Part shown: positions 18,291-33,383 of the stretch, piece after piece
How the letters are laid out: each line of letters opens with the position of its first letter
How positions within the stretch are numbered: position 1 is the stretch's first letter
DNA from: Salinivenus sp.
GTDB lineage: Bacteria; Bacteroidota; Rhodothermia; Rhodothermales; Salinibacteraceae
Length of the DNA stretch: 33,383 bases
Direction of reading: 5' to 3'
NCBI GenBank assembly: GCA_018609755.1
Contig: JAHENZ010000185.1
Coordinates: 1 to 33,383 of the forward strand
The notes under the pieces: generated by a model
What the model was told of the DNA's origin: nothing
The model's database searches: none
The model's input: the letters and a program-made list of their open reading frames with translations, nothing else
Position numbers and translations under genes: made by a program

Positions 18291-20597
18291 ATGTCGATGT
18301 CGGATTCTTTTTTCGAGTCCCACGACCTTACGCGTCGCGAACTCCTGAAGTTAGTAGGGACGGCCAGTGCCGGCACCATCCTCACGGGGGCGCTCTCGGG
18401 GTGCGGGCCGCTGTGGGAGCGTCAGCCCGCTATCGACGTGGACACTTGGCACAAGGGCGTGTGCCGGTTTTGCGGGACCGGGTGCGGGGTGCAGATTGGG
18501 ACGCAGGACGGAGAGATTGTCGACGTAAAAGGAGACCAATACGCACATAACCGCGGGCGTCTCTGCGTCAAGGGCATCCTCAACCGAGACATTTTGAAGG
18601 TAGAAGACCGTGCCGTTCATCCGTTGATCCGGAAAAACGGTACGCTTCAGCAGGCGAGCTGGGAGGAGGCCATGCGTCGAGCGGTCGACGGATTTCAGGA
18701 AGCGATCGACACTCGTGGCCCCGATAGCGTCGCCTTCTACGGCAGCGGCCAGCTCTATACCCAGGAAAGCTACACGGCCAACAAGCTGTTTAAGGGGGCA
18801 ATCGGTACCAACAACGTCGACGGCAATCCGCGGCTCTGCATGGCCTCGGCGGCGGCCGGGTACATCTCAACGTTCGGTGCCGATGAGCCGATGGGGTGCT
18901 ACGAGGACATCGATCACGCCGATTGCTTCTTTATCACGGGATCAAACACGGCCGAGTGCCACCCCATCGTCTGGGATCGCGTGCAGGACCGGAAAGAATC
19001 GCGGCCTGAGACCACGATCATCGTCGTGGATCCGCGAAAGACCCGCACGGCCCGCCACGCCGACTTGCATCTGCCCATCACGCCGGGTACCGACGTGGCG
19101 CTCTACAATGGCCTGATGCGACAGTTTGTGGAGATGGACGCCGTCGACCAGGACATGGTCGAGAACTACCTGACGTTTCAGCAGGGAGGAGGCGAGGGCG
19201 GGACGCGCACGTACGACGACCTCGTGCAGCACCTCTCCCGCTACCCACTGGAGCGAGTGAGCGACATTTGCGAGGTGAGTCCCCGAAACATCCGGGAGGC
19301 AGCCTTTCAGTTTGCCGACGCCGGGGCGGCGATGTCGATCTGGACGATGGGACTGAACCAGCAGGCACAGGGGACGGCCTGCAACCGCCTCGTGAACGCG
19401 ATGCACTTGCTTACCGGCCACATCGGCCGTCCGGGGGCCACGCCGTTCTCGCTGACGGGGCAGCCGAACGCCGGGGGCGGGGTGCGCGACACGGGGGCGC
19501 TGGCGCATGCTTTGCCTGGGGGGCGCAAGGTGGCGAGTGCAGAGGATCGACGCGAGATGGAAAAGCTGTGGGAACTCGAGGAGGGCAGCATCGACGACAG
19601 CCCGGGCTACGACGCCGTCTCCATGTTTGGTGCTATGGGCCGCGGGGACGTGCAAGCCGCCCTGGTGATGTGCACGAACCCGGCGCAGTCCCTGCCCAAC
19701 GCCGAGCAGTACCGCCAGGCGATGGACGAGGCGTTTCTGGTTGTGGCCGACGCCATTCATCCGACCGAAACCACGAAGTTTGCGGACGTGGTCCTGCCGG
19801 CGGCGATGTGGGCGGAGAAGGGGCCGGGCATCTTCAGTCAGAGCGAGCGGCGCTACCACGCCGTGCCGCAGATCGTGGACCCGCCCGGGGAGGCGCGCCC
19901 GGACCTCGACATTCTGGTGGACTTCGCCACGCGCCTGGGACATGACGACGTGATCACCGCGCAAACCTACGAGGACGTGTGGGCGGAGTGGCGGAAAATC
20001 TCTCAGTATTCCTACTACGATTTCTCGGGCATGACCATGGAGCGACTGCTGGAGGAGCGGGGCCTGCTGTGGCCGTGTCCGTCGGAGGATCATCCCGGCA
20101 CCTGTCGCCGGTACGTGCCGGGGGAGGACCCGCTGGCCGAAGGAGAGGGGCGATTTGACTTCTACGGCCGGTCGGACGGGCAAGCCGTCGTTTGGCTCGA
20201 AGACCAGGAGCCCCCCTCCGACGAACGCACTGATGACTTTCCGCTCGTGCTCACGACCGGTCGCGTGTACGAGCACTGGCACACCGCCACCATCACCGGC
20301 GCCCTCGACCAACTCGACAACATCGACATCGATTTTCTCGCGATCAATCCGGCCGACGCCCGAGCGCGGGGCATTGCCGATGGCGATCGGGTGGAAGTAG
20401 AGAGCACCCGCGGGTCGGTCGAGCTGGTCGCCAAGGTCACGTCCGACATCGTCTCCGGCGTCGTCTTCTCAACGTTTCACTCGCCGAACCACATCGTCAA
20501 CCGTGCCGTCAACGACGAACTCGACCCCTCCTCGAAGCAACCCGAATTCAAGGTCAGCGCCGTTGCCGTCCGGCCCGCGTCCGGGGCTGTCTCCTAA
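18291..20597 (+). CDS. napA: NapA-type periplasmic nitrate reductase-like molybdoenzyme
   Basis: A 768-residue exported enzyme of the bis-MGD molybdopterin family. A Tat signal (TRRELLK, residues 14-20, then a hydrophobic stretch) targets the folded protein. The 4Fe-4S ligands are C58-x2-C61-x3-C65-x26-C92, followed by K94, the conserved electron-transfer lysine. C183 in NPRLCMASAAAG is the expected molybdenum ligand, and the segment after it (TFGADEPMGCYEDIDHADC, GSNTAECHP) is NapA-like rather than formate-dehydrogenase-like. The C-terminal pterin-binding domain begins near TGRVYEHWHTATITG. It is about 60 residues shorter than common NapA proteins. The tetraheme cytochrome gene beside it fits quinol-linked nitrate reduction in the periplasm; no napB, napD or napG/H is present here, so another oxyanion substrate cannot be excluded. 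Confidence 0.82.
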   Translation: MSMSDSFFESHDLTRRELLKLVGTASAGTILTGALSGCGPLWERQPAIDVDTWHKGVCRFCGTGCGVQIGTQDGEIVDVKGDQYAHNRGRLCVKGILNRDILKVEDRAVHPLIRKNGTLQQASWEEAMRRAVDGFQEAIDTRGPDSVAFYGSGQLYTQESYTANKLFKGAIGTNNVDGNPRLCMASAAAGYISTFGADEPMGCYEDIDHADCFFITGSNTAECHPIVWDRVQDRKESRPETTIIVVDPRKTRTARHADLHLPITPGTDVALYNGLMRQFVEMDAVDQDMVENYLTFQQGGGEGGTRTYDDLVQHLSRYPLERVSDICEVSPRNIREAAFQFADAGAAMSIWTMGLNQQAQGTACNRLVNAMHLLTGHIGRPGATPFSLTGQPNAGGGVRDTGALAHALPGGRKVASAEDRREMEKLWELEEGSIDDSPGYDAVSMFGAMGRGDVQAALVMCTNPAQSLPNAEQYRQAMDEAFLVVADAIHPTETTKFADVVLPAAMWAEKGPGIFSQSERRYHAVPQIVDPPGEARPDLDILVDFATRLGHDDVITAQTYEDVWAEWRKISQYSYYDFSGMTMERLLEERGLLWPCPSEDHPGTCRRYVPGEDPLAEGEGRFDFYGRSDGQAVVWLEDQEPPSDERTDDFPLVLTTGRVYEHWHTATITGALDQLDNIDIDFLAINPADARARGIADGDRVEVESTRGSVELVAKVTSDIVSGVVFSTFHSPNHIVNRAVNDELDPSSKQPEFKVSAVAVRPASGAVS

Positions 20598-24645: not shown

Positions 24646-26571
24646 TCAGGCGTTTGCTGGAATCCGAAGGACCATCGCGAGCTTAGCATCTGCCGTCAAG
24701 ACCCGATCGGGGGGACGAAGACGGACGGCCAGAACCTCTTGGTTCGGAAGGTCCACGTCCGTGACGTGTTCGACGCGAACGGGCGGCGGCTCCTCTATCT
24801 TCTTGTTAGGGTCAGACGCATCCCGGTCGCGCACGTCATCCGGTTTCTCAGACGGAACGGTATCGGGGGCCAGAAAGGATTCCATTTGGGCGGCGACCGT
24901 TGCCTGCAGCTCCTCCAAAGGAGCGGTGAGATCCAGCTCGCGTTTCAGGGTGAATAGACGGTGAGCCACTCGGGTCAAAAACAGGCGGCAGGGAAGGGAG
25001 GCTTCCGTGCGGGCGTCGGCGGCGGCCGATGGGTCGTCGTAAACGCTCGGCTCGTGCACCGATGGTGCGTGCACGATGTGAATACTACCGTCATCGGTCT
25101 CGTCGAGAACGGTGAAGCCCGCCCGAGCCAACTCCGATTGCATGCTACCCGAAAACGGAGCCGAAAGACATTGTTTTCCCGGAGAATGAGAGGGCGACTG
25201 GATTTCGATCTGCTGTTGTGTCAGATGGGTGGCCCATCCGGTGTCAACGTAGCTCTGAGCGGCCGCTACTCCCACTGCGAGCGCCCCGCTTCCGAAGAGG
25301 CCCTCGTCCTCGTCAACGTCGAACGAGGTCGCTGAGGAATCTCCTCGATAAGGGGGGCGTAACTGCACCGACGGCAACGTAAGGCTCAGGAAGGAGGCGG
25401 ACTCTTCGGATCGAAGGCGCTCCCATTCGACGTACTCGTCGCCCTGCAACTGGGGGCGGAGGGACGGCAGCCGACTTAGCCCACGGACGTGTTCTGTCCC
25501 GAAAAAATCTGCTGCCACCGACGCCACGACCGGAGCTTGAAGGCTTTCCCCCGTTCCTGCGAGATCGGCCAATTGTTCGACGTCAACGTGTGAATGTCCA
25601 AACGCCTGGTCAACCATCACCAGAGACGTTGGAGGATCGTCGTTGGCTTCGTCGTGCTCGGGGAGCAGGACCTGATGGTGCAGGGCCTCGTGTAGATCGT
25701 CGCGATTTGCGGACAGCACCAACAGGTCTACGCCGCCGTCCAGGTCGATCTGCTTTTCCAGAAAATAAAGGCCTCGCCAGGCAGCCTCTAGCTGGCGAAA
25801 TTCCGGGTGCGTGAGCACTGCCTCCACCTGTGCCGCGAGCCGCTCGTCGAGTCGGGCAAGGATGCGGTCAGCCGCCACTTCGTCACTGACCGACGACGTT
25901 CTTTTCTCTGATGAGGACGGGGATTCTGAGGCAGGGGAGGCCCCGTCTTGCCCATTGGTTTCGACCATGTCCATGACCCTCCCGAGGGCATCGTCTCCTT
26001 CGCTCCGCGCAAGCGAAGAGGAGTCCGCTTCTGGGGCGGTTCCCTCAGGAACCTCTCCGTCCACGAGCAACTGATACAGATCGTCTGCCCAATCGACGTT
26101 CAAGTCGATGTCGTCAAGTTTTTCCTGGAATGTCGATGCGTCCATCGTCTCGTTTTGTACCGCCTGCACTAAGGAGCGGGCTTCGAGCAGACGGGCGGTC
26201 GGGTCCATCTGCTGCGCGATCTGCTTCGGGGAAAACGCCTCCCGCGTCGGAAAGGAAAGCGAGACTGTCCACGTGTCCGGATGGTCACTGAGCCGATTGG
26301 GCACCTCCACGGTGAGTTCCGGCCCGAGCTCGGCCATGAGGTCTGTCGCACTTTTCGGTCCGATGTGGTGACGGCGATCCTCTTTTGACCAGTCCGAGGG
26401 AGAGGCGTGGGGCGTGAGAGGACTCACGAACAAGAGGCGAAACGGGAGCGAGGCCTCAGCCGGAGGCGATTGGGATTCGTCGGCACGGCCGGTCGTAATT
26501 TCCATCCCAATGCGGGCACCGGTGGAATCGTCAGGGGACGGGTCAGTCTCTGAAGAAGGAGGGTTGTCCAT
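24646..26571 (-). CDS. Type VI secretion contractile sheath protein, fused TssB-TssC
   Basis: A 641-residue protein that appears to hold both T6SS sheath subunits in one chain. Residues about 42-140 follow TssB/VipA: LPFRLLFVSPLTP, then GPKSATDLMAELGPELTVEV and the SPKQIAQQMDPTARLLEARS helix. A Ser/Asp/Glu-rich linker runs to about 230. Residues about 232-641 follow TssC/VipB from end to end: RILARLDERLAAQVEAVL, HPEFRQLEAAWRGLYFL (255-271), VDLLVLSANRDDL, LTLPSVQLRPPYRG, CRLFLTRVAHRLFTLKREL and the last strands VRLRPPD...LAMVLRIPA. In usual T6SSs these are separate genes of about 160-180 and 490 codons; the total here matches their sum. The two DUF1795 genes directly upstream fit a T6SS. The chain is very acidic, like the rest of the window. 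Baseplate, Hcp and ClpV genes are not in view. Confidence 0.85.
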   Translation of the reverse strand: MDNPPSSETDPSPDDSTGARIGMEITTGRADESQSPPAEASLPFRLLFVSPLTPHASPSDWSKEDRRHHIGPKSATDLMAELGPELTVEVPNRLSDHPDTWTVSLSFPTREAFSPKQIAQQMDPTARLLEARSLVQAVQNETMDASTFQEKLDDIDLNVDWADDLYQLLVDGEVPEGTAPEADSSSLARSEGDDALGRVMDMVETNGQDGASPASESPSSSEKRTSSVSDEVAADRILARLDERLAAQVEAVLTHPEFRQLEAAWRGLYFLEKQIDLDGGVDLLVLSANRDDLHEALHHQVLLPEHDEANDDPPTSLVMVDQAFGHSHVDVEQLADLAGTGESLQAPVVASVAADFFGTEHVRGLSRLPSLRPQLQGDEYVEWERLRSEESASFLSLTLPSVQLRPPYRGDSSATSFDVDEDEGLFGSGALAVGVAAAQSYVDTGWATHLTQQQIEIQSPSHSPGKQCLSAPFSGSMQSELARAGFTVLDETDDGSIHIVHAPSVHEPSVYDDPSAAADARTEASLPCRLFLTRVAHRLFTLKRELDLTAPLEELQATVAAQMESFLAPDTVPSEKPDDVRDRDASDPNKKIEEPPPVRVEHVTDVDLPNQEVLAVRLRPPDRVLTADAKLAMVLRIPANA

Positions 26572-26628: not shown

Positions 26629-27318
26629 TCAAGCTGCAGGCCAATTTCTACGTTCGGTGTCGACGGGACGGAAGCTTCGCATCACACGTTCGACCTCAGG
26701 ACCGAGTTGCTTCCGCGTCGTAGGGGTAAACCCGGCCGAGAGCACGTACCCAGTGTTGTCGTGTATTGTGTAGAGTTGCTCGTGATAACGTTTTCGATCG
26801 GGGGCCGGATACCAGACGTAAATTCCCCGATGGGCGGGATGTCCGCACGCGAGTGTGATCGGGTCGTCCATGAGGAGGCGACACCCGTCAAGTTGGGCCT
26901 CCAGTTGTTCCCGTTCGTGTTGGGCGAATACAGACGGATCATCTATCCCTACGTCCTCAACCGTCGTGATTGAAATGCGGTGTGTCAGTCCGTCGCGCGT
27001 AGGGCCGATGAGGGTGTGGGTAGACTGATCGGTCCAGGTATCGTCCGGGAGCGTGCACTGAAAGGCATCTGTCCGGTACCTGCGAGGCTTCTGAGTTTCT
27101 GGTAGTGGAGAGGGTTCTGATGCCGACGAGCCACGTTGATTGTTGGCAGAGTGTTCGTCGGCAGATGCGAGGTCTTGATAATACTCGGGAAGGTCCTTAC
27201 TCACGGATTCTGATACCGTTTGGACAAAACGGTTATTGGTTGTTTCAGAAATGAAAGTACGATACAGGTGTGCGTATGCTTTATGTGTCGGGCTGTTGCA
27301 TGACAAGGGGGTACACAT
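26629..27318 (-). CDS. DUF1795/DcrB-family protein, EagR-like T6SS adaptor (copy 1)
   Basis: A 229-residue protein whose C-terminal part (about 75-225) matches the DUF1795/DcrB fold: FQCTLPDDTWTDQSTHTLIG, then HEREQLEAQLDGCRLL, CGHPAHRGIYVWYPAP and YVLSAGFTPTTRKQLG. In T6SSs this domain is found in EagR chaperones, which load toxin-bearing effectors onto VgrG. I start it at ATG 27318, 20 bp after the upstream stop, with AAAAGG 5 bases before; the frame is open to a TTG at 27372. The first ~75 residues look poorly conserved and the DNA there is AT-richer. It lies 57 bp upstream of the TssBC gene. The role as effector adaptor is inferred from family and context. Confidence 0.7.
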   Translation of the reverse strand: MCTPLSCNSPTHKAYAHLYRTFISETTNNRFVQTVSESVSKDLPEYYQDLASADEHSANNQRGSSASEPSPLPETQKPRRYRTDAFQCTLPDDTWTDQSTHTLIGPTRDGLTHRISITTVEDVGIDDPSVFAQHEREQLEAQLDGCRLLMDDPITLACGHPAHRGIYVWYPAPDRKRYHEQLYTIHDNTGYVLSAGFTPTTRKQLGPEVERVMRSFRPVDTERRNWPAA

Positions 27319-27337
27319 CGCGGCCTTTTCTTGAAGA

Positions 27338-27877
27338 TTACCGCCGATGCCGTAAGGGAGGGTGAGGCTCAAAGCTTCGGAAGATGTGCTCTACCTTCGG
27401 ACCTACGACCGGCAGGCTTTGCTCAGTAAATCGCGCCGATAACCGGTATCCGACCTCGTGATAGACAAGATACCAGTCTTCCTGAAGGAGCGGACGGTCG
27501 GCTCCCGAGGTTAATGAAAAGACGACCCGTGATGCGGGGAGGTCGTTGTCGAGCTTTGTGCGAGACCGGGCACTTACTTGCCCGTTTTCCAAGGCTTCAG
27601 TTTGTTGTTCGACGCGTCGTCCAGCGTAGTCAACCATGGCAATGTCACCGACCTCCGGGTCGACGTTGATCCGGATGATGTGCTGAAATTCGTCCTCAAC
27701 AGGGCCTCTCAGGCAGTACACGGTGTTGCTGTTCCAGGCGTCGTCCAGAGACACCGTGAAGGCATCAGCGAAGTACGTCGTGGATGGGGGAGGGGGCTTA
27801 TTGTTAGAGAATTGCGAATCATTTCCCGAGTCGTGTGCCGACGCTGTCCCGGGGAAGGACGTAGACGTTCGATTCAT
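27338..27877 (-). CDS. DUF1795/DcrB-family protein, EagR-like T6SS adaptor (copy 2)
   Basis: A 179-residue paralogue of the next gene. After a Ser/Asn/Pro-rich leader of ~35 residues comes the DUF1795/DcrB domain: FTVSLDDAWNSNTVYCLRG, IIRINVDPEV, LPASRVVFSL and GYRLSARFTEQSLPVVGPKV. No signal peptide is visible, so unlike DcrB proper it is cytoplasmic, as EagR chaperones are. ATG 27877 has AAGG 7 bases upstream. The two copies share the domain plan but differ widely, suggesting different partners. It follows the frameshifted remnant gene by 87 bp. Confidence 0.68.
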   Translation of the reverse strand: MNRTSTSFPGTASAHDSGNDSQFSNNKPPPPSTTYFADAFTVSLDDAWNSNTVYCLRGPVEDEFQHIIRINVDPEVGDIAMVDYAGRRVEQQTEALENGQVSARSRTKLDNDLPASRVVFSLTSGADRPLLQEDWYLVYHEVGYRLSARFTEQSLPVVGPKVEHIFRSFEPHPPLRHRR

Positions 27878-28634
27878 GATGGAACCTTCAGCGATGATAT
27901 TAGGGACGGAAGAAGAGGTGGGTACTCAGCCTATCAGTTTCAAAAGTGTATCCAGAGCAATGCGTTAAGTAAGTTTTTGTTTACTATCTGTGTTCCTAAA
28001 GTGGAGTTCCATAGGGGGCTTCTCAATTGGCACGTTGAAAGCGATCAAAGATCTGATCTGGGCCAGCTGGTCGACCGAGGCGCCCTGCCGGGCTGCATCC
28101 CGGTAGGCATTCGCCAGAAAGAAAAGGTGCAGGCCGTCGATGGCGATCGCATTTCGGCTCACCCGTCGCTGTCCGGCTTTGTACAGGTTGGCTTTCCGCC
28201 GGTGCTCGGTGACCTCGTCCATCTTCTTCCCGTATTCCTGAAGTCCGGCCTCGCGGCCCTGCATGGCCTGCTGGGCCTCTTTCCCGGTCTGCACGCGCTT
28301 TCCTTTCAATTTGAAGAGCTCGTCGGCCTTCTTGCCCGTGCCTACGTTGTCGTGGACGTACTGGGCGACCGCCCCGATGGCACTGCGGTGCGATCTGCCA
28401 CAGGGACGCTTCGTTCGAGTCGGGACCGGTGGTGCCGTGGAGCGGAGCGTCTCGGCTCGACCTCAAAAGCTCCGGGAAGAAGTACTTGATGGGGCCGGGC
28501 GGAACGTCGGAGAGCTCGGCGCGGCCCTCCGCATCGAGTGTCGTTTTTTGCTCGCTTCCGTCCGGAAGAATCACGACGACCGTCTCGTCCGCCACCGGCG
28601 CGTCGGTCACGAGGTCGCAGAGGCGAATGGTCAC

Positions 28635-28764
28635 GTCGTCCACGAACGTCGGGAGGCCCTTTTCCTTCGCGTCGGTTGAGTCTGACTGCACCCCCAGCAC
28701 GTCCACGGTATAGAAAAACCGCGGCTGCGCGTACCCCTCCGGCGCCTCCCACTCGGAGACGATG
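28635..28764 (-). repeat. Direct repeat B, copy 1 (130 bp)
   Basis: About 120 of 130 bases match 32906-33035 by eye. It encodes the EWEAPEGYAQPRFFYTVDV segment through FVDD. It lies only 25 bp from repeat A copy 1, whereas in the intact genes the two lie in different genes about 1.1 kb apart and in the opposite order. Confidence 0.88.
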
Positions 28765-28789
28765 GTGGCCACCTCGCTACTCCGTGCGA

Positions 28790-29003
28790 TGATGACCACC
28801 GGACACCGGTAGCCTTCGAGAAGCCAGTGAACGAGGCACCGGCGCGTCTGCTCGTTGGCCACTCCGCTTATCGGGCCGTCGTAGTACGTCAGAGATCCCT
28901 CTGGATTTTGGGTCCCCGACAGGCGTTCGACGTACTCGCCCTCGGCCTCCAGATCCTCCTGGGCCACCCGCCCCATCCCCGCGTAGATCTGAAATTCCCG
29001 CAC
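28790..29003 (-). repeat. Direct repeat A, copy 1 (214 bp)
   Basis: About 206 of 214 bases match 31547-31760 by eye, including an unbroken run of over 100. It encodes the end of a peptidoglycan-binding domain and the segment ending CPVVI. In this copy it opens the chimeric remnant. Confidence 0.9.
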
Positions 29004-29108
29004 TGAGTACTCAATATAAATTCCCCCTACGGTCTTGTTTCATTTGAACCAAAGTATTCGGGGAGCATATAGAAGCACGGTATATTTTTGAAGAACTGGT
29101 ACCGACTG

Positions 29109-30275
29109 ATGACGCTCGTGAATATGTTCTCATCTTCAGTTGGGCTTCCGAAAATACGAGCAGTGTTGCACCGACCGAAGGCGATTGTAACCGCTGGCTT
29201 ATTGGTGGCCGGAGCGTTCGGGTTTAGCACGTTCGGCTCCAACGAGACGCCCCCAGCCACCTTCGCCGCCGAACAGGACGAAAGGGTAGAGTCCACGGAC
29301 ACGTCCGATGAAGCGACGAACGCCGAGGATCGAACCGAGGTTGACTGTCCAGTCGGTTCAAAACGAGGAGACGCCACCATCCGGATCGACTCGACCAATC
29401 GAGAATGGACGATTACCACGATAAAGCCGGACTCCCAGTTCAAAGCTAAAGGAGAACACCTGCCGGTCGACTGGAACGAACTGGAATTGGTAAGTCGGGG
29501 AGACATAAATCGGGACGGCCGAATGGACGCGGTGGTAAAAATCCAATTTGATACTGCTCGCCCCGTTGGAGGACGGCATCACTGGGTGTTTGTCAGCTGT
29601 GGTAGAGACCGGTACGTATCGGTCACGCCGATCTTGAGGCTTGACCGAGATCATCTGCACCGTACGAGGAAGGTTGAGAAGCCGTGGCCCAATTTAACGG
29701 CGCTTGGAGAAGTGAGGAGGGCTAACCATCCGAAAGGGTACTACTATCGTCAGACATACCGGTATAACAAAGAAGAGGAGCGGTACCGCCCCGTATCGGG
29801 ATCGGCCCGATACAAAAAAGAGTCGGCTAAGCGACTTGGGATTAACCTCGACGATCGCCCCCAATGCTCCGTTGGAAAGGGGCCGCCGATTCGGATCCAG
29901 CCCACCGAGAAGACCAAACGCCCCCTCCAGCCCGGCGACAGCGTGCGAATCGAACCAACGTACCATCCAGAAAAGTCCTATGAGATAGAGTGGGCGGGTG
30001 ATTTGAATTACAACAAAAGAGATGACCTAGTGGTTGAGGTTGGCTGTGGTAGCGCGGACAGATGCAGACATGTTGTGTATTACAGATGCAGTACTGAACG
30101 TCACTGGTATTCTGTAATTTCAGAAGAAATACATGCAAAAGAAATAAATGTTGATGACGAAAATAAAAATGGATGGAGGAAAATCAGAAAAATAGGTAGT
30201 ATAAAAGAGAATGAGTACGTACTTGAATTTGGTTTTACTGGGTATACCCAGAAGAGCCTTTCACCAGTTGAATGA
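29109..30275 (+). CDS. Secreted protein with two Ca-binding-like repeats; candidate immunity protein
   Basis: The only plus-strand gene in the T6SS region. With ATG 29109 it has 388 residues (TTG 29088 would add seven). A hydrophobic segment (about residues 24-40) is a signal peptide or anchor, so the rest should be periplasmic. The mature part looks like an internal duplication: RGDINRDGRMDAVVKIQF with HHWVFVSC in the first half, AGDLNYNKRDDLVVEV with HVVYYRC in the second. The D-x-N-x-D-x-R-x-D pattern resembles FG-GAP or dockerin-like Ca loops. It lies tail to tail with the effector candidate, overlapping its 3' end by 15 bp. That pairing and the location suggest immunity to a cell-wall-cutting effector, but this is inference. 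The last ~90 codons are AT-rich with many AAA, ATA, AGA and AGG codons, unlike the neighbours. Confidence 0.55.
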   Translation: MTLVNMFSSSVGLPKIRAVLHRPKAIVTAGLLVAGAFGFSTFGSNETPPATFAAEQDERVESTDTSDEATNAEDRTEVDCPVGSKRGDATIRIDSTNREWTITTIKPDSQFKAKGEHLPVDWNELELVSRGDINRDGRMDAVVKIQFDTARPVGGRHHWVFVSCGRDRYVSVTPILRLDRDHLHRTRKVEKPWPNLTALGEVRRANHPKGYYYRQTYRYNKEEERYRPVSGSARYKKESAKRLGINLDDRPQCSVGKGPPIRIQPTEKTKRPLQPGDSVRIEPTYHPEKSYEIEWAGDLNYNKRDDLVVEVGCGSADRCRHVVYYRCSTERHWYSVISEEIHAKEINVDDENKNGWRKIRKIGSIKENEYVLEFGFTGYTQKSLSPVE

Positions 30276-32132
30276 GTCCCTGCGATTAAGGATGGGCTGA
30301 TCATCGATGCGAGCGAGCGTATCGCCGAGCCTGCCAGATACATCTCCTCCGACGTTATCAATCTGGGAGATTAGAGCGGACTCGTGATCATCAGTCCAAT
30401 AAATCGGATCGCAGGTCCATGAATTGCCTATTGCGTTTTGATCCACGTCGAGGTTGGGGACTTCTGCACGCGCATTTTCCAATACTGTTGTGAGGTTCGC
30501 GTCCTGACAAGGCCCACTCGTGTCAATGAATGAGCTAGGATGGAACACGTGCCATCGCACGAGCATTGCCACCGCTTTCTCAGAGGTAAACACGTCGCCA
30601 ATTGTGGTGTCGTCCGGCCAGTGCTCGAGAGGATTCTCCCACTGGACGCTCAGCACGTCTTCCACCCGCATCCGGGCATAGTCCCAGCAGGCCTCCTGGA
30701 ACGAATTCTCCATCTGTGGAAAGTGTTGGAGACGGGAGGCCATCAAGAACCGGTAGTACCAATGCCAATTCCGAAAGTAGTCCCACTCTCTGCTTGCTTC
30801 TTCCTCGGAAAATGGATCCTCCCCGGTTCTCATCGGCAGTAGCTCCATTCCGCCCGAGGTCTCTTTCTCGATCGAGGCCACGTACTTTTGCTGAGAGGTG
30901 AAAAGCGCCTCCCCGTTCTCCCCCCAGTCGGTGTCGACGTCAACCCCGAATTGTCCGAAGATGTACTCGTAGGTGTGTTCGTATTCGCTTTTCAGGTAGG
31001 ACAAAAACCCGCAAAGCTCTCCTTCTTGCACGGGGCGCTTGTCGTACCGGGGCATGGTCCAGTGGTACGGACCGGCCGAAAGAAGGGCTTCGTCGTACGC
31101 ATTAAGACTGTCGAGATGGCCGTTGCATTCAACCTGGCTGATGGCCTCTATGACGTTGTACATCGAGTTCTCTTCGGTCCCGAACAGCTCAGGGGTAATT
31201 TCCGTCGAGTCCCACGTCTGTCCCTCCTGTGATACCGTGCACGGCCCATACCATTCATTGCTCTCGTCCATTAGATAGTAGCCGAGCGTAATCCGATCCC
31301 CATACTCGTATTCCCCCTCGTCACTCCCAGCGATTTCGCTGGTAAGGTCTGTGCTTTCGTCATTCAGGAGTGCTCTATCCGAGCCAGGCTCTGAGGGGGC
31401 AAGAAAGTAGCCGGTGAAGTCATGGGCAAACATTCGACAAGCAGTCGTCTCAACGTCGTCGTGCCGCCAGAGATTTTCGGCGTCTGCTCCCTCGGCAATA
31501 GCGCCGCCGTCGTAGACGGACTCGTATCCGTCGCCGGTCCGAGCGGTGATGACCACCGGACACCGGTAGCCTTCGAGGAGCCAGTGAACGAGGCACCGGC
31601 GCGTCTGCTCGTTGGCCACTCCGCTTATCGGGCCGTCGTAGTACGTCAGAGATCCCTCTGGATTTTGGGTCCCCGACAGGCGCTCCACGTACTCGCCCTC
31701 GGCCTCCGGATTCTCCTGGGCCACCCGGCCCATCCCCGCATAGATCTGAAACTCCCGCACCGCCTGCTCGGTCCGGGGGCCGAACACCCCATCGAACTCC
31801 CGGATGAGGCCGAACCCCAGATTCCACAGGTCCAATTGAAGTTGAGTCACGTATCCGCCGAGGGAAACCGTCGGGGGCTGCTCCTCGGCCGGATCCACGA
31901 CAATGCCGGGAAGCACCACGTCTCCGTTGGCGAGTCCAATCTCCCGCCCCTCCTCCACGGGCGCCGAGGGCCAGGAGCCGTCCCAGTCGTTCCGGCGGAG
32001 CGTGTAGTTGCCGTACCGCCGGTAGAACGGAGCCTCCTCCGGGAGCAGGTCAACGGCGGCCTGCCCGGCCTCCGAAAAGCTCGTCTCAATCCAGGACTCG
32101 ATCGTCGGCTCGGATGAATTCGACGTAGACAT
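30261..32132 (-). CDS. Candidate T6SS effector: peptidoglycan-binding domain plus lysozyme-like region
   Basis: A 623-residue cytoplasmic-type protein without signal peptide. Residues 95-135 are a PG_binding_1 domain (VTQLQLDLWNLGF, FDGVFGPRTEQAVREFQ). The segment 155-196, part of repeat A, is shared with the remnant. From about 200 on I recognise no named family, but residues 326-360 read like the active region of a lysozyme-fold glycosidase: E335 in SQVECNGHLDSLNAYDEALL followed by SAGPYHWTM. Many Trp and Tyr residues follow (WDYFRNWHWYYRFLMASRL). Cell-wall cleavage after T6SS delivery is a reasonable guess; the T6SS genes nearby and the possible immunity gene at its 3' end support it. It begins 47 bp after the upstream gene, so it is probably in the same transcript. 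Confidence 0.55.
   Translation of the reverse strand: MSTSNSSEPTIESWIETSFSEAGQAAVDLLPEEAPFYRRYGNYTLRRNDWDGSWPSAPVEEGREIGLANGDVVLPGIVVDPAEEQPPTVSLGGYVTQLQLDLWNLGFGLIREFDGVFGPRTEQAVREFQIYAGMGRVAQENPEAEGEYVERLSGTQNPEGSLTYYDGPISGVANEQTRRCLVHWLLEGYRCPVVITARTGDGYESVYDGGAIAEGADAENLWRHDDVETTACRMFAHDFTGYFLAPSEPGSDRALLNDESTDLTSEIAGSDEGEYEYGDRITLGYYLMDESNEWYGPCTVSQEGQTWDSTEITPELFGTEENSMYNVIEAISQVECNGHLDSLNAYDEALLSAGPYHWTMPRYDKRPVQEGELCGFLSYLKSEYEHTYEYIFGQFGVDVDTDWGENGEALFTSQQKYVASIEKETSGGMELLPMRTGEDPFSEEEASREWDYFRNWHWYYRFLMASRLQHFPQMENSFQEACWDYARMRVEDVLSVQWENPLEHWPDDTTIGDVFTSEKAVAMLVRWHVFHPSSFIDTSGPCQDANLTTVLENARAEVPNLDVDQNAIGNSWTCDPIYWTDDHESALISQIDNVGGDVSGRLGDTLARIDDQPILNRRDSFNW
31547..31760 (-). repeat. 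Direct repeat A, copy 2 (214 bp)
   Basis: The intact-gene copy of repeat A, coding for residues 125-196 of the effector candidate. It has the same orientation as copy 1, about 2.76 kb away. Recombination between the copies would delete the plus-strand gene between them and the effector's C-terminal part. Confidence 0.9.
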
Positions 32133-32179
32133 GACAAAAGGAGTTTGAGAAGCAAAACAAATGAGAAGTGACCGGGGAC

Positions 32180-33383
32180 CTACGCGTCCCGAAACCGCAA
32201 TCCGTCGAGCATCGGGCGCTCCATGTCGGGGATCGTGCCGCTAACGGAGGTCCCCAGCTGCGCTTGCAACGACTGAACGGCCGCCGTCGACAGCGGGCCG
32301 GGGGCCCCGTCGACCGTTCCGCCGTACGAGCCGACTTGCGCGAGGCGCTGCTGCAGCCCGTCGTCGTCCTCGCCCGCCGAAAGATCCGTAAGGTCCAGCG
32401 GGATCGTCACGTCCCCACCCTCTGTCTTCAGCGTAAGCGCGGCGGCCACCGATCCCACGGGCACCGCCTGCTGCAGCCGTCCCTCAGTGCCTACTGTTCC
32501 GTCGAGCGTGGAGGTAGATCCGTCCTCGGTCTTGACCTTCAGCGTGTAGTCGGTCCCTGTCGGCTCCGCGCCGATGAGCCCGTGCTCTAAGTGGAGGTCG
32601 ATTTGGGGCGGCACGACGCAGATCGTCTCCTCGCCTCCAGTGGCCACCTCGGCGGTCGCTTCCAGCGTGTCCATCACGAGTCGTGTTGCGTCGTCGGGCG
32701 AAGGGGGGACCTCGGTCTCCGATTCGTTTGTCGAAGGGTCGTAGCTGGCCAGCCCGATCTGAACCGGGCCTGGCGGTACCCCTTGCATTTGGAGGCGCCC
32801 GTCCCCGGACGTCTGCTTTTCCTGGGTGGACCCGTCCGCAAAGGTGATTTCGACACTCTGGTTGGCCAGCGGCGCTTCATTCTCGTTCACAAACTGGAGC
32901 TCCAGGTCGTCCACGAACGTCAGGAGACCCTTTTCCTTCGCGTCGGTTGAGTCCGCCTGCACGCCCAACACGTCGACGGTATAGAAAAACCGCGGCTGGG
33001 CGTACCCCTCCGGCGCCTCCCACTCGGGAACGATGTCCTCGGTGTCCCCCGGGTACTGAAACTGATACATCACCTCCACGGCCGCATTCTCCACCCGCGG
33101 CCGCAGCCGAGTGACAGGTTTGTGGGCCTCCCCCCGCGGGGCCTCCTGAAAGATCCGCACGACGGCCCGCTCTCCGTCCGGCGCCCCGCGGGCCTCCGCC
33201 GAAAGCGTAAGAATGTCGCACCGCTGGACGGTCTCCTGCGACCACCGGGGGCCGGAGACCCGCACCGGATCGGTGATCCGAACCGCCTCCGACTCGGCCG
33301 AGAGGCCGTGGTTCGGCATGTTCACCTTCGCCAGCAGACCGCCTTTGGCCTCGGGGGGCACCCGGAGCTGGAGGTTCAGGTCC
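32180..33383 (-). CDS. T6SS-associated multidomain protein with C-terminal peptidoglycan-binding domain (5' end outside window)
   Basis: The frame is open through the right edge, so at least 401 residues are seen and the N-terminus is missing. The visible part begins with DLNLQLRVPPEAKGG and continues with a beta-rich region ending EWEAPEGYAQPRFFYTVDV, which includes repeat B. Then come two carboxypeptidase-regulatory-like units (ITFADGSTQEKQTSGDGRL with VPPGPV, and LKVKTEDGSTSTLDGTVG). The last ~55 residues form a PG_binding_1 domain (LQQRLAQVGSYGGTVDGAPG, STAAVQSLQAQLG). Proteins with this plan often lie beside vgrG or PAAR genes and may be effector carriers or spike-associated. It is probably co-transcribed with the effector candidate 47 bp downstream. 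The exact role cannot be told without its first part. Confidence 0.6.
   Translation of the reverse strand, partial: DLNLQLRVPPEAKGGLLAKVNMPNHGLSAESEAVRITDPVRVSGPRWSQETVQRCDILTLSAEARGAPDGERAVVRIFQEAPRGEAHKPVTRLRPRVENAAVEVMYQFQYPGDTEDIVPEWEAPEGYAQPRFFYTVDVLGVQADSTDAKEKGLLTFVDDLELQFVNENEAPLANQSVEITFADGSTQEKQTSGDGRLQMQGVPPGPVQIGLASYDPSTNESETEVPPSPDDATRLVMDTLEATAEVATGGEETICVVPPQIDLHLEHGLIGAEPTGTDYTLKVKTEDGSTSTLDGTVGTEGRLQQAVPVGSVAAALTLKTEGGDVTIPLDLTDLSAGEDDDGLQQRLAQVGSYGGTVDGAPGPLSTAAVQSLQAQLGTSVSGTIPDMERPMLDGLRFRDA
32906..33035 (-). repeat. Direct repeat B, copy 2 (130 bp)
   Basis: The copy of repeat B within the T6SS-associated gene that runs off the right end of the window. It has the same orientation as copy 1 and lies 4.27 kb from it. 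Confidence 0.88.

What the first reader, a model, noticed from the sequence alone, without database searches (positions are those of the whole stretch)
24646..26571. One-chain T6SS sheath: TssB and TssC fused
The two sheath subunits of T6SS are normally separate proteins that assemble as a heterodimer. Here TssB-like (about 42-140) and TssC-like (about 232-641) regions are in one frame with an acidic linker of some 90 residues. This would fix the 1:1 ratio and resembles the single-polypeptide sheaths of phage tails and extracellular injection systems. The linker may also affect ClpV access, since the ClpV-binding helix in usual systems is at the TssC N-terminus, which here is internal. I know of no widely described natural TssBC fusion, but cannot search.
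Basis: partly seen in the sequence, partly recalled or inferred. Interest (0 to 1): 0.8.

Follow-up and report, generated by a model that had tools for sequence, protein, structure and literature searches.

The report
Fused spare sheath protein of T6SS
A bacterium's harpoon-like weapon, the type VI secretion system, has its normal two-part contractile sleeve plus an extra sleeve protein in which both parts are joined into one chain; related bacteria keep this extra protein next to the weapon's loading and control genes, so it is probably a specialised sleeve part and not the sleeve itself.

Summary
The fusion is real. The minus-strand ORF 26571-24646 encodes 641 aa with a TssB-like part (38-155) and a TssC-like part (about 223-628), both above Pfam cut-offs. 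It is no sequencing error: 16 other full-length one-frame versions (19 genomes in all, counting fragments) occur across Rhodothermales, form one clade (100/100) and are under purifying selection. A one-chain sheath replacing the usual two is not supported: the same genome has intact separate tssB and tssC in a full T6SS cluster, as do 17 of the 19. The fusion is a fast-evolving accessory paralogue, encoded after an effector-loading chaperone gene (EagR/DcrB or DUF2169) in 10 of 17, and before an FHA-transglycosylase/PP2C/kinase module in 15 of 17. The 'acidic linker' is a short spacer plus TssC's own N-terminus, whose ClpV-binding motif survives in 16/17 (the window copy has D-to-G). Positions needed for bulk sheath assembly and contraction are relaxed. 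The AlphaFold model superposes as one protomer on single-chain eCIS and phage sheaths. Best reading: a specialised minor sheath subunit, perhaps a basal or terminal ring. Not unprecedented: a different TssB-TssC fusion, TssCL, beside separate tssB/tssC, was reported in roseobacters in 2022.

The parts
24646..26571 (-). TssB-TssC fusion gene, 641 aa (accessory sheath paralogue)
   Evidence: ORF; Pfam VipA + VipB; 16 other full-length homologues; dN/dS with G009 0.16
26455..26571 (-). N-terminal arm, residues 1-39, the place of the TssB strand exchanged between sheath subunits; rebuilt relative to canonical TssB; disordered in the monomer model
26107..26460 (-). TssB/VipA-like part, residues 38-155
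   Evidence: PF05591 E 7.9e-17
25963..25992 (-). Residues 194-203 DALGRVMDMV: internal counterpart of the TssC ClpV-binding motif (LLDEIM type); D-to-G in this copy, [LV]D in 16 of 17 fusions
   Evidence: motif definition from PMC4239648
24688..25905 (-). TssC/VipB-like part, residues 223-628, including the C-terminal region
   Evidence: PF05943 E 2.4e-37; aligns to solved TssC chains Z 26-33
26629..27372 (-). EagR/DcrB-type T6SS effector chaperone, directly upstream of the fusion (57 bp gap); N-terminus uncertain (TTG start)
   Evidence: PF08786 E 3.3e-9; AlphaFold model (mean pLDDT 58 overall, about 75-89 in the domain) best matches EagT6 and SciW; spacing
27338..27877 (-). Second DcrB/EagR-like gene
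   Evidence: PF08786 E 0.011, below cut-off; paralogue of the first, same pair in G009
28023..29003 (-). Protein with weak carboxypeptidase-regulatory-like match; possibly T6SS accessory (uncertain)
30261..32132 (-). Peptidoglycan-binding-domain protein, possibly T6SS-associated (uncertain)
   Evidence: PF01471 E 2.4e-8
32180..33383 (-). PG_binding protein running off the contig end; the last 83 bases match the start of contig C302 (canonical T6SS cluster) at 79/83

Best explanation
SHOWN: 24646-26571(-) encodes an accessory paralogue of the T6SS sheath in which TssB and TssC are one chain. It forms a single clade in the sampled Rhodothermales, is inherited with an IcmF-type T6SS that keeps its own separate TssB and TssC, and sits beside an effector-loading chaperone gene and usually an FHA-transglycosylase/phosphatase/kinase module. 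INFERRED: it folds as a single sheath protomer and joins the tail of that same T6SS as a minor, position-specific sheath subunit, most likely a ring at the baseplate/spike end or a terminal ring, as the AFP eCIS sheath is built from three paralogues (Afp2, Afp3, Afp4). The covalent link fixes the 1:1 ratio for a part made in few copies. Positions needed for bulk polymerisation and contraction have drifted, while the ClpV recognition helix is kept in the internal linker so that the part can be extracted and recycled with the rest.
For: Both domains over Pfam cut-offs. Canonical tssB/tssC in the same genome. 19 of 114 genomes of the order carry the fusion and 17 of these also carry canonical TssC. 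One clade, 100/100, on both the TssB and TssC parts, apart from all canonical copies. Purifying selection: dN/dS about 0.1-0.3 where dS is estimable; dN 2.6-11 times that of TssC from the same genome pairs. Operon context: chaperone gene (DcrB/EagR in 4, DUF2169 in 6) within -4 to 260 nt upstream in 10 of 17; FHA-SLT directly downstream in 15 of 17 (also G424); Pfam identities; neighbour folds like EagT6/SciW. Structural model: TssC chains at Z 26-33, and single-chain sheaths of AFP, PVC and phages, including AFP cap and baseplate chains, at Z about 15-21 over 40-628 in one superposition. ClpV motif in the linker in 16/17 against 0.2 expected by shuffling; Rhodothermales ClpV has an aliphatic residue 6 like Vibrio, the class that pairs with LLDEIM-type TssC (PMC4239648). 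Relaxed sites: the column of VipB K223 (needed for assembly) is K in 19/23 canonical but 1/17 fusions; D333 (needed for contraction) is acidic in 21/23 canonical but 9/17 fusions (roles from PMC5797969). An 11-residue TssC segment is missing in 17/17. eCIS precedent for several sheath paralogues: PMC12961389.
Against: No evidence of expression, assembly or position exists. K223 loss in V. cholerae stops sheath assembly, so the fusion may not polymerise with TssBC at all. The neighbours (chaperones, FHA, kinase) equally suit a loading or regulatory role. In the window lineage and G009 the FHA-SLT neighbour is missing, and in G009 the gene is over 1 Mb from the T6SS cluster, so tight coupling is not absolute. 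The window copy has lost the conserved Asp of the ClpV motif. The N-terminal arm cannot be aligned unambiguously.
Confidence: 0.42

Rival explanations
1. Regulatory 'brake' subunit: the fusion co-assembles with TssBC along the sheath and, because contraction-critical contacts are changed, makes sheaths that hold or fire only when the neighbouring kinase/phosphatase/FHA module permits; a natural version of the dominant-negative VipA/VipB mutants.
For: D333 acidic in only 9/17 fusions; V. cholerae VipB-D333A and long-linker VipA subunits co-assemble with wild type and block T6SS (PMC5797969); PP2C-kinase-FHA genes adjacent in most genomes.
Against: K223, needed for assembly, is lost in 16/17, so co-assembly along the sheath is doubtful; 9/17 still have an acidic residue at D333; no direct data.
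Confidence: 0.17
2. Effector-loading or spike-assembly scaffold: a sheath-derived protein that no longer forms sheath but helps load EagR- or DUF2169-dependent effectors on VgrG/PAAR.
For: Directly downstream of DcrB/EagR or DUF2169 chaperone genes, with 4-nt overlaps in G009 and G455; DUF1795 and DUF2169 families are effector-loading factors (PMC11883445); faster evolution than the sheath.
Against: The sheath fold including the C-terminal region, and the ClpV motif, are kept; FHA-SLT is a more constant neighbour than the chaperone.
Confidence: 0.2
3. Second bulk sheath: the fusion polymerises by itself around Hcp as an alternative long contractile sheath, giving a second firing mode with the same baseplate.
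For: Full-length protomer fold; motif for ClpV recycling kept.
Against: No second Hcp/TssE/F/G/K set seen near it; assembly and contraction sites relaxed; dN several times that of TssC, unlike a bulk polymer.
Confidence: 0.1
4. Decaying relic, or assembly artefact of adjacent tssB and tssC.
For: A shrunken 468-aa version exists in G442 with the TssB part nearly gone; no fusion was found in G018, which still has FHA-SLT and DUF2169.
Against: 17 full-length open frames in many genera, one clade, dN/dS well below 1; separate tssB/tssC exist elsewhere in the same genomes, so it is not a misread pair.
Confidence: 0.03

Closest known systems
TssCL of roseobacters (PMC9515649, 2022; Leisingera, Parasedimentitalea)
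   Same: TssB-like and TssC-like parts in one chain; separate tssB and tssC kept in the same cluster; gene lies beside spike (VgrG/PAAR) and FHA genes; highly divergent from canonical TssC; a TssC-type N-terminal segment remains between the two parts.
   Different: TssCL has a 520-780 aa N-terminal acidic extension with 8-15 LDxLL-like repeats and lacks the TssC C-terminal region; by eye it keeps the segment that the Rhodothermales fusions have deleted. Common origin neither supported nor rejected (p-AU 0.513).
Canonical T6SS sheath TssB/TssC (VipA/VipB)
   Same: Homologous over nearly the whole length; same fold (Z 26-33); ClpV-type motif.
   Different: One chain; scores about half the equivalog cut-offs; assembly/contraction residues and an 11-residue segment not kept; an accessory extra copy.
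Single-chain sheaths of eCIS (Afp2/3/4, PVC), pyocins and phages
   Same: One polypeptide spanning both halves; model residues 40-628 superpose as one protomer (Z about 15-21); AFP uses three sheath paralogues (PMC12961389).
   Different: By sequence it is TssB+TssC, not an eCIS sheath; it belongs with a membrane-anchored IcmF T6SS which has its own two-chain sheath.
TagF-PppA fusions of T6SS
   Same: Fusion of two T6SS partners (as cited in PMC9515649).
   Different: There the single copies are absent; here the separate genes remain.

Membership tests
T6SS sheath subunits TssB and TssC (Pfam PF05591, PF05943) | Match above curated family cut-offs | tested here: met
   61.9 vs 24 bits and 129 vs 27 bits
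Canonical TssB (TIGR03358) and TssC (TIGR03355) equivalogs | Score above the equivalog cut-off, the mark of a standard sheath subunit | tested here: not met
   56.7 vs 97.25 and 135.2 vs 271.5 bits
Canonical T6SS sheath | Encoded as the only TssB/TssC of the genome | tested here: not met
   Separate tssB and tssC in the same genome
Canonical T6SS sheath | Residues needed for assembly (K223) and contraction (D333) in V. cholerae VipB | tested here: not met
   K223 column K in 1/17, D333 column acidic in 9/17; window copy has E and G
Canonical T6SS sheath | ClpV-binding motif at the TssC N-terminus | tested here: inconclusive
   Motif internal, present in 16/17 fusions; the window copy itself has LG for LD
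Canonical T6SS sheath | Polymerises around Hcp and contracts | not testable with these tools
   Needs biochemistry or cryo-EM
TssCL (roseobacter TssB-TssC fusion) | TssB and TssC domains in one chain with separate tssB and tssC retained | tested here: met
TssCL (roseobacter TssB-TssC fusion) | Long N-terminal acidic LDxLL-repeat extension and missing TssC C-terminus | tested here: not met
   N-terminal extension only about 39 aa; C-terminal region present
TssCL (roseobacter TssB-TssC fusion) | Common origin (one clade) | tested here: inconclusive
   p-AU 0.513, long branches
eCIS / phage single-chain sheath | One-chain protomer fold | tested here: met
   Single superposition over 40-628 at Z about 15-21; predicted model only
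eCIS / phage single-chain sheath | Closest sequence relatives are eCIS or phage sheaths | tested here: not met
   All sequence matches in the PDB are T6SS TssB/TssC

The most novel reading that the evidence does not exclude
The T6SS of Rhodothermales has a dedicated minor sheath ring made of a single-chain TssBC, coupled to effector chaperones and a phospho-regulatory module: a structural part of the tail (sheath initiator, terminator or firing gate) for which I know no T6SS counterpart, and of which roseobacter TssCL would be an independent or sister instance.
Probability: 0.33. Interest if true: 0.75.

Novelty: new variant of a known kind. Interest (0 to 1): 0.52.

Why it matters
T6SS sheaths are described as polymers of one TssB-TssC pair, whereas some eCIS sheaths use several paralogues. 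A conserved single-chain TssBC paralogue carried beside the normal pair suggests that some T6SS tails also have specialised sheath positions, and that such parts exist in at least two bacterial phyla (Rhodothermales here, roseobacter TssCL in the literature). It gives a cultivable, non-pathogenic host (Roseithermus sacchariphilus) in which to ask what a minor sheath subunit does: start, stop, gate or recycle the sheath.

Tried and rejected
(1) Sequencing error or misassembly: rejected by 16 other full-length one-frame homologues. (2) The fusion as the sole sheath: rejected, separate genes exist. (3) Vibrio sp. THAF191 plasmids, where tblastn joined TssB and TssC in one piece with no annotation: these are two separate ORFs with a stop between. 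(4) G352, G374, G293 in other Bacteroidota: separate genes with stops between. (5) A longer TssB N-terminal linker as a sign of non-contractility: first look gave R-to-LP spacing of 18 (17 in two) in canonical TssB and 20-28 in fusions by my hand alignment, but MAFFT places a second conserved segment (TxIxxP) 13-19 residues before LP, so the strand equivalence is ambiguous; not used as evidence. (6) First genome-contig scan with the single protein found nothing; with the alignment it found only Rhodothermia. That is a one-pattern scan, so absence elsewhere is weak evidence; beyond Bacteroidota I could check only that scan, plasmids and phages; the genome search accepts no centre outside the phylum. 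(8) phmmer of a DcrB neighbour against the PDB gave nothing; the fold search did. (9) Two Pfam calls failed on my own coordinates.

Full report
OBSERVATION. The ORF at 24646-26571 is on the minus strand, 641 aa from an ATG. Pfam finds T6SS_VipA (TssB) at 38-155 (E 7.9e-17) and VipB (TssC) at 235-453 (E 2.4e-37), both well over their cut-offs. The NCBIfam equivalogs for standard TssB and TssC match the same places at only about half their cut-off scores, the first sign that this is a divergent copy. All sequence matches in the PDB are T6SS sheath chains.

NOT AN ARTEFACT. Whole-genome searches found the same one-frame architecture in 19 of 114 genomes of the order; 17 full-length sequences, the window's included, were aligned, one more is cut at a contig end (G441) and one is split over contigs (G424). 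Named relatives include Roseithermus sacchariphilus and several Rhodothermales/Salinibacteraceae MAGs. dN/dS is about 0.1-0.3 for pairs with estimable dS.

NOT THE SOLE SHEATH. The window's own genome has intact tssB (177 aa) and tssC (511 aa) on contig C302, in a cluster with TssK, IcmF/TssM, TagF, TssA, Hcp, TssE, TssF, TssG and the start of ClpV. Of 19 fusion-bearing genomes 17 have canonical TssC; the two exceptions are 81% and 74% complete. In G024, G033, G035, G031 and others the fusion is on the same contig, 15-30 kb from tssBC. In the window's genome the two contigs probably adjoin: the last 83 bases of the window and the first 83 of C302 agree at 79 positions, inside one gene read in the same direction. 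In the nearest relative, G009, the fusion lies more than 1 Mb away. In the rest of the phylum sample (395 genomes) only separate TssB and TssC were seen.

HISTORY. Trees of the TssC part and of the TssB part both give one fusion clade (100/100), separate from canonical copies of the same genomes and of Vibrio and other Bacteroidota; fusion branches are much longer. dN between fusion pairs is 2.6 to 11 times that of TssC between the same genomes. The simplest reading is one old fusion, kept alongside the normal sheath and evolving faster. A shrunken 468-aa version in G442 has almost lost its TssB part and still precedes FHA-SLT.

NEIGHBOURHOOD. Directly upstream, within -4 to 260 nt, is a DcrB/EagR-like gene (G000, G009, G039, G455) or a DUF2169 gene (G024, G030, G033, G035, G432, G444); both are effector-loading families (PMC11883445). 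The window's own neighbour (26629-27372) matches PF08786 and its modelled domain (mean pLDDT 58 overall, higher in the domain) best matches EagT6 and SciW chaperones. Directly downstream, in 15 of 17, is an FHA-transglycosylase gene followed by PP2C, a Ser/Thr kinase and CsgG-TPR proteins; the window lineage and G009 lack it there.

ANATOMY. The AlphaFold2 model (mean pLDDT 79.7, pTM 0.78) aligns to solved TssC over 220/230-628 (Z 26-33) and, in single superpositions spanning about 40-628, to one-chain sheaths of eCIS, pyocins and phages (Z about 15-21), including AFP baseplate and cap chains. So the TssB and TssC halves are predicted to pair in cis as one protomer. The ClpV of these genomes has an aliphatic residue at position 6, as in Vibrio and unlike roseobacter ClpV (R), the class that goes with LLDEIM-type TssC. 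By contrast, the column of VipB K223 (assembly) is K in 19/23 canonical TssC but 1/17 fusions, that of D333 (contraction) is acidic in 21/23 but 9/17 (roles from PMC5797969), and an 11-residue segment is deleted in all fusions.

MECHANISM. Taken together: an accessory, single-chain sheath protomer of the resident T6SS, encoded with effector-loading and phospho-control genes, that keeps the fold and the ClpV handle but not the sites required of bulk sheath. I think a minor position-specific ring (basal or terminal) is likeliest (0.42), by analogy with the AFP eCIS, whose sheath is built of Afp2, Afp3 and Afp4 (PMC12961389). A loading scaffold (0.2) or a contraction brake (0.17) remain open. All steps after 'accessory paralogue in a T6SS gene neighbourhood' are inference.

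WHAT IS KNOWN. I found one earlier description of a natural TssB-TssC fusion: TssCL of roseobacters, beside separate tssB and tssC, reported as confined to Alphaproteobacteria (PMC9515649). I fetched three TssCL genes: they have a TssB-like and a TssC-like part, a 520-780 aa N-terminal extension with 8-15 LDxLL-type repeats (expected 0.7-0.9), and no TssC C-terminal region. Whether the two families share an origin is undecided (p-AU 0.513). Literature searches with fusion and paralogue terms found nothing else. Hence: new variant of a known kind.

LIMITS. No expression or protein data; distribution outside Bacteroidota tested only by a one-pattern genome scan, plasmids and phages; N-terminal arm not alignable with confidence; no multi-chain prediction available; the genome is a 328-contig assembly with 4.96% estimated contamination, but the co-occurrence also holds in complete or near-complete relatives (G031, G035, G009).

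Noticed in passing
L102:28735-32352, L103:31732-34980, L104:32065-36177: Roseobacter TssCL proteins carry 8-15 LDx[LIV][LFM] repeats in a long acidic N-terminal extension (0.7-0.9 expected by shuffling), resembling the ClpV-binding motif; could be a multivalent ClpV recruiter.
   Followed up: partly
L092:9969-11375 (G442): A shrunken 468-aa relative of the fusion, TssB part nearly gone, still directly before FHA-SLT; reads AVDRLMRM in the linker.
   Followed up: partly
L037:1468-3345 and homologues: FHA domain fused to a lytic transglycosylase (SLT) domain, the most constant neighbour of the fusion; possibly opens the wall for the T6SS or reads the kinase signal.
   Followed up: partly
L025 (G000:C302): Rhodothermales have an IcmF/TssM-containing T6SS, unlike the Bacteroidota T6SS described as lacking canonical membrane-complex genes (PMC10781749).
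   Followed up: no
window 28023-33383 and L034, L040: A set of peptidoglycan-binding, carboxypeptidase-regulatory-like and PQQ/OmpA-domain proteins recurs near VgrG or the fusion in several genomes; candidate T6SS accessory or effector genes.
   Followed up: no
window 33301-33383 and G000:C302:1-83: Contig ends overlap at 79 of 83 bases, suggesting strain variation broke the assembly inside the T6SS cluster.
   Followed up: yes
window 18291-20597: NapA/formate-dehydrogenase-like molybdopterin oxidoreductase, below all equivalog cut-offs.
   Followed up: no
G018:C352, G018:C239 and L099: Two different canonical TssC genes but no fusion in a relative that still has DUF2169 and FHA-SLT; the fusion's expected place holds unrelated ORFs.
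   Followed up: partly
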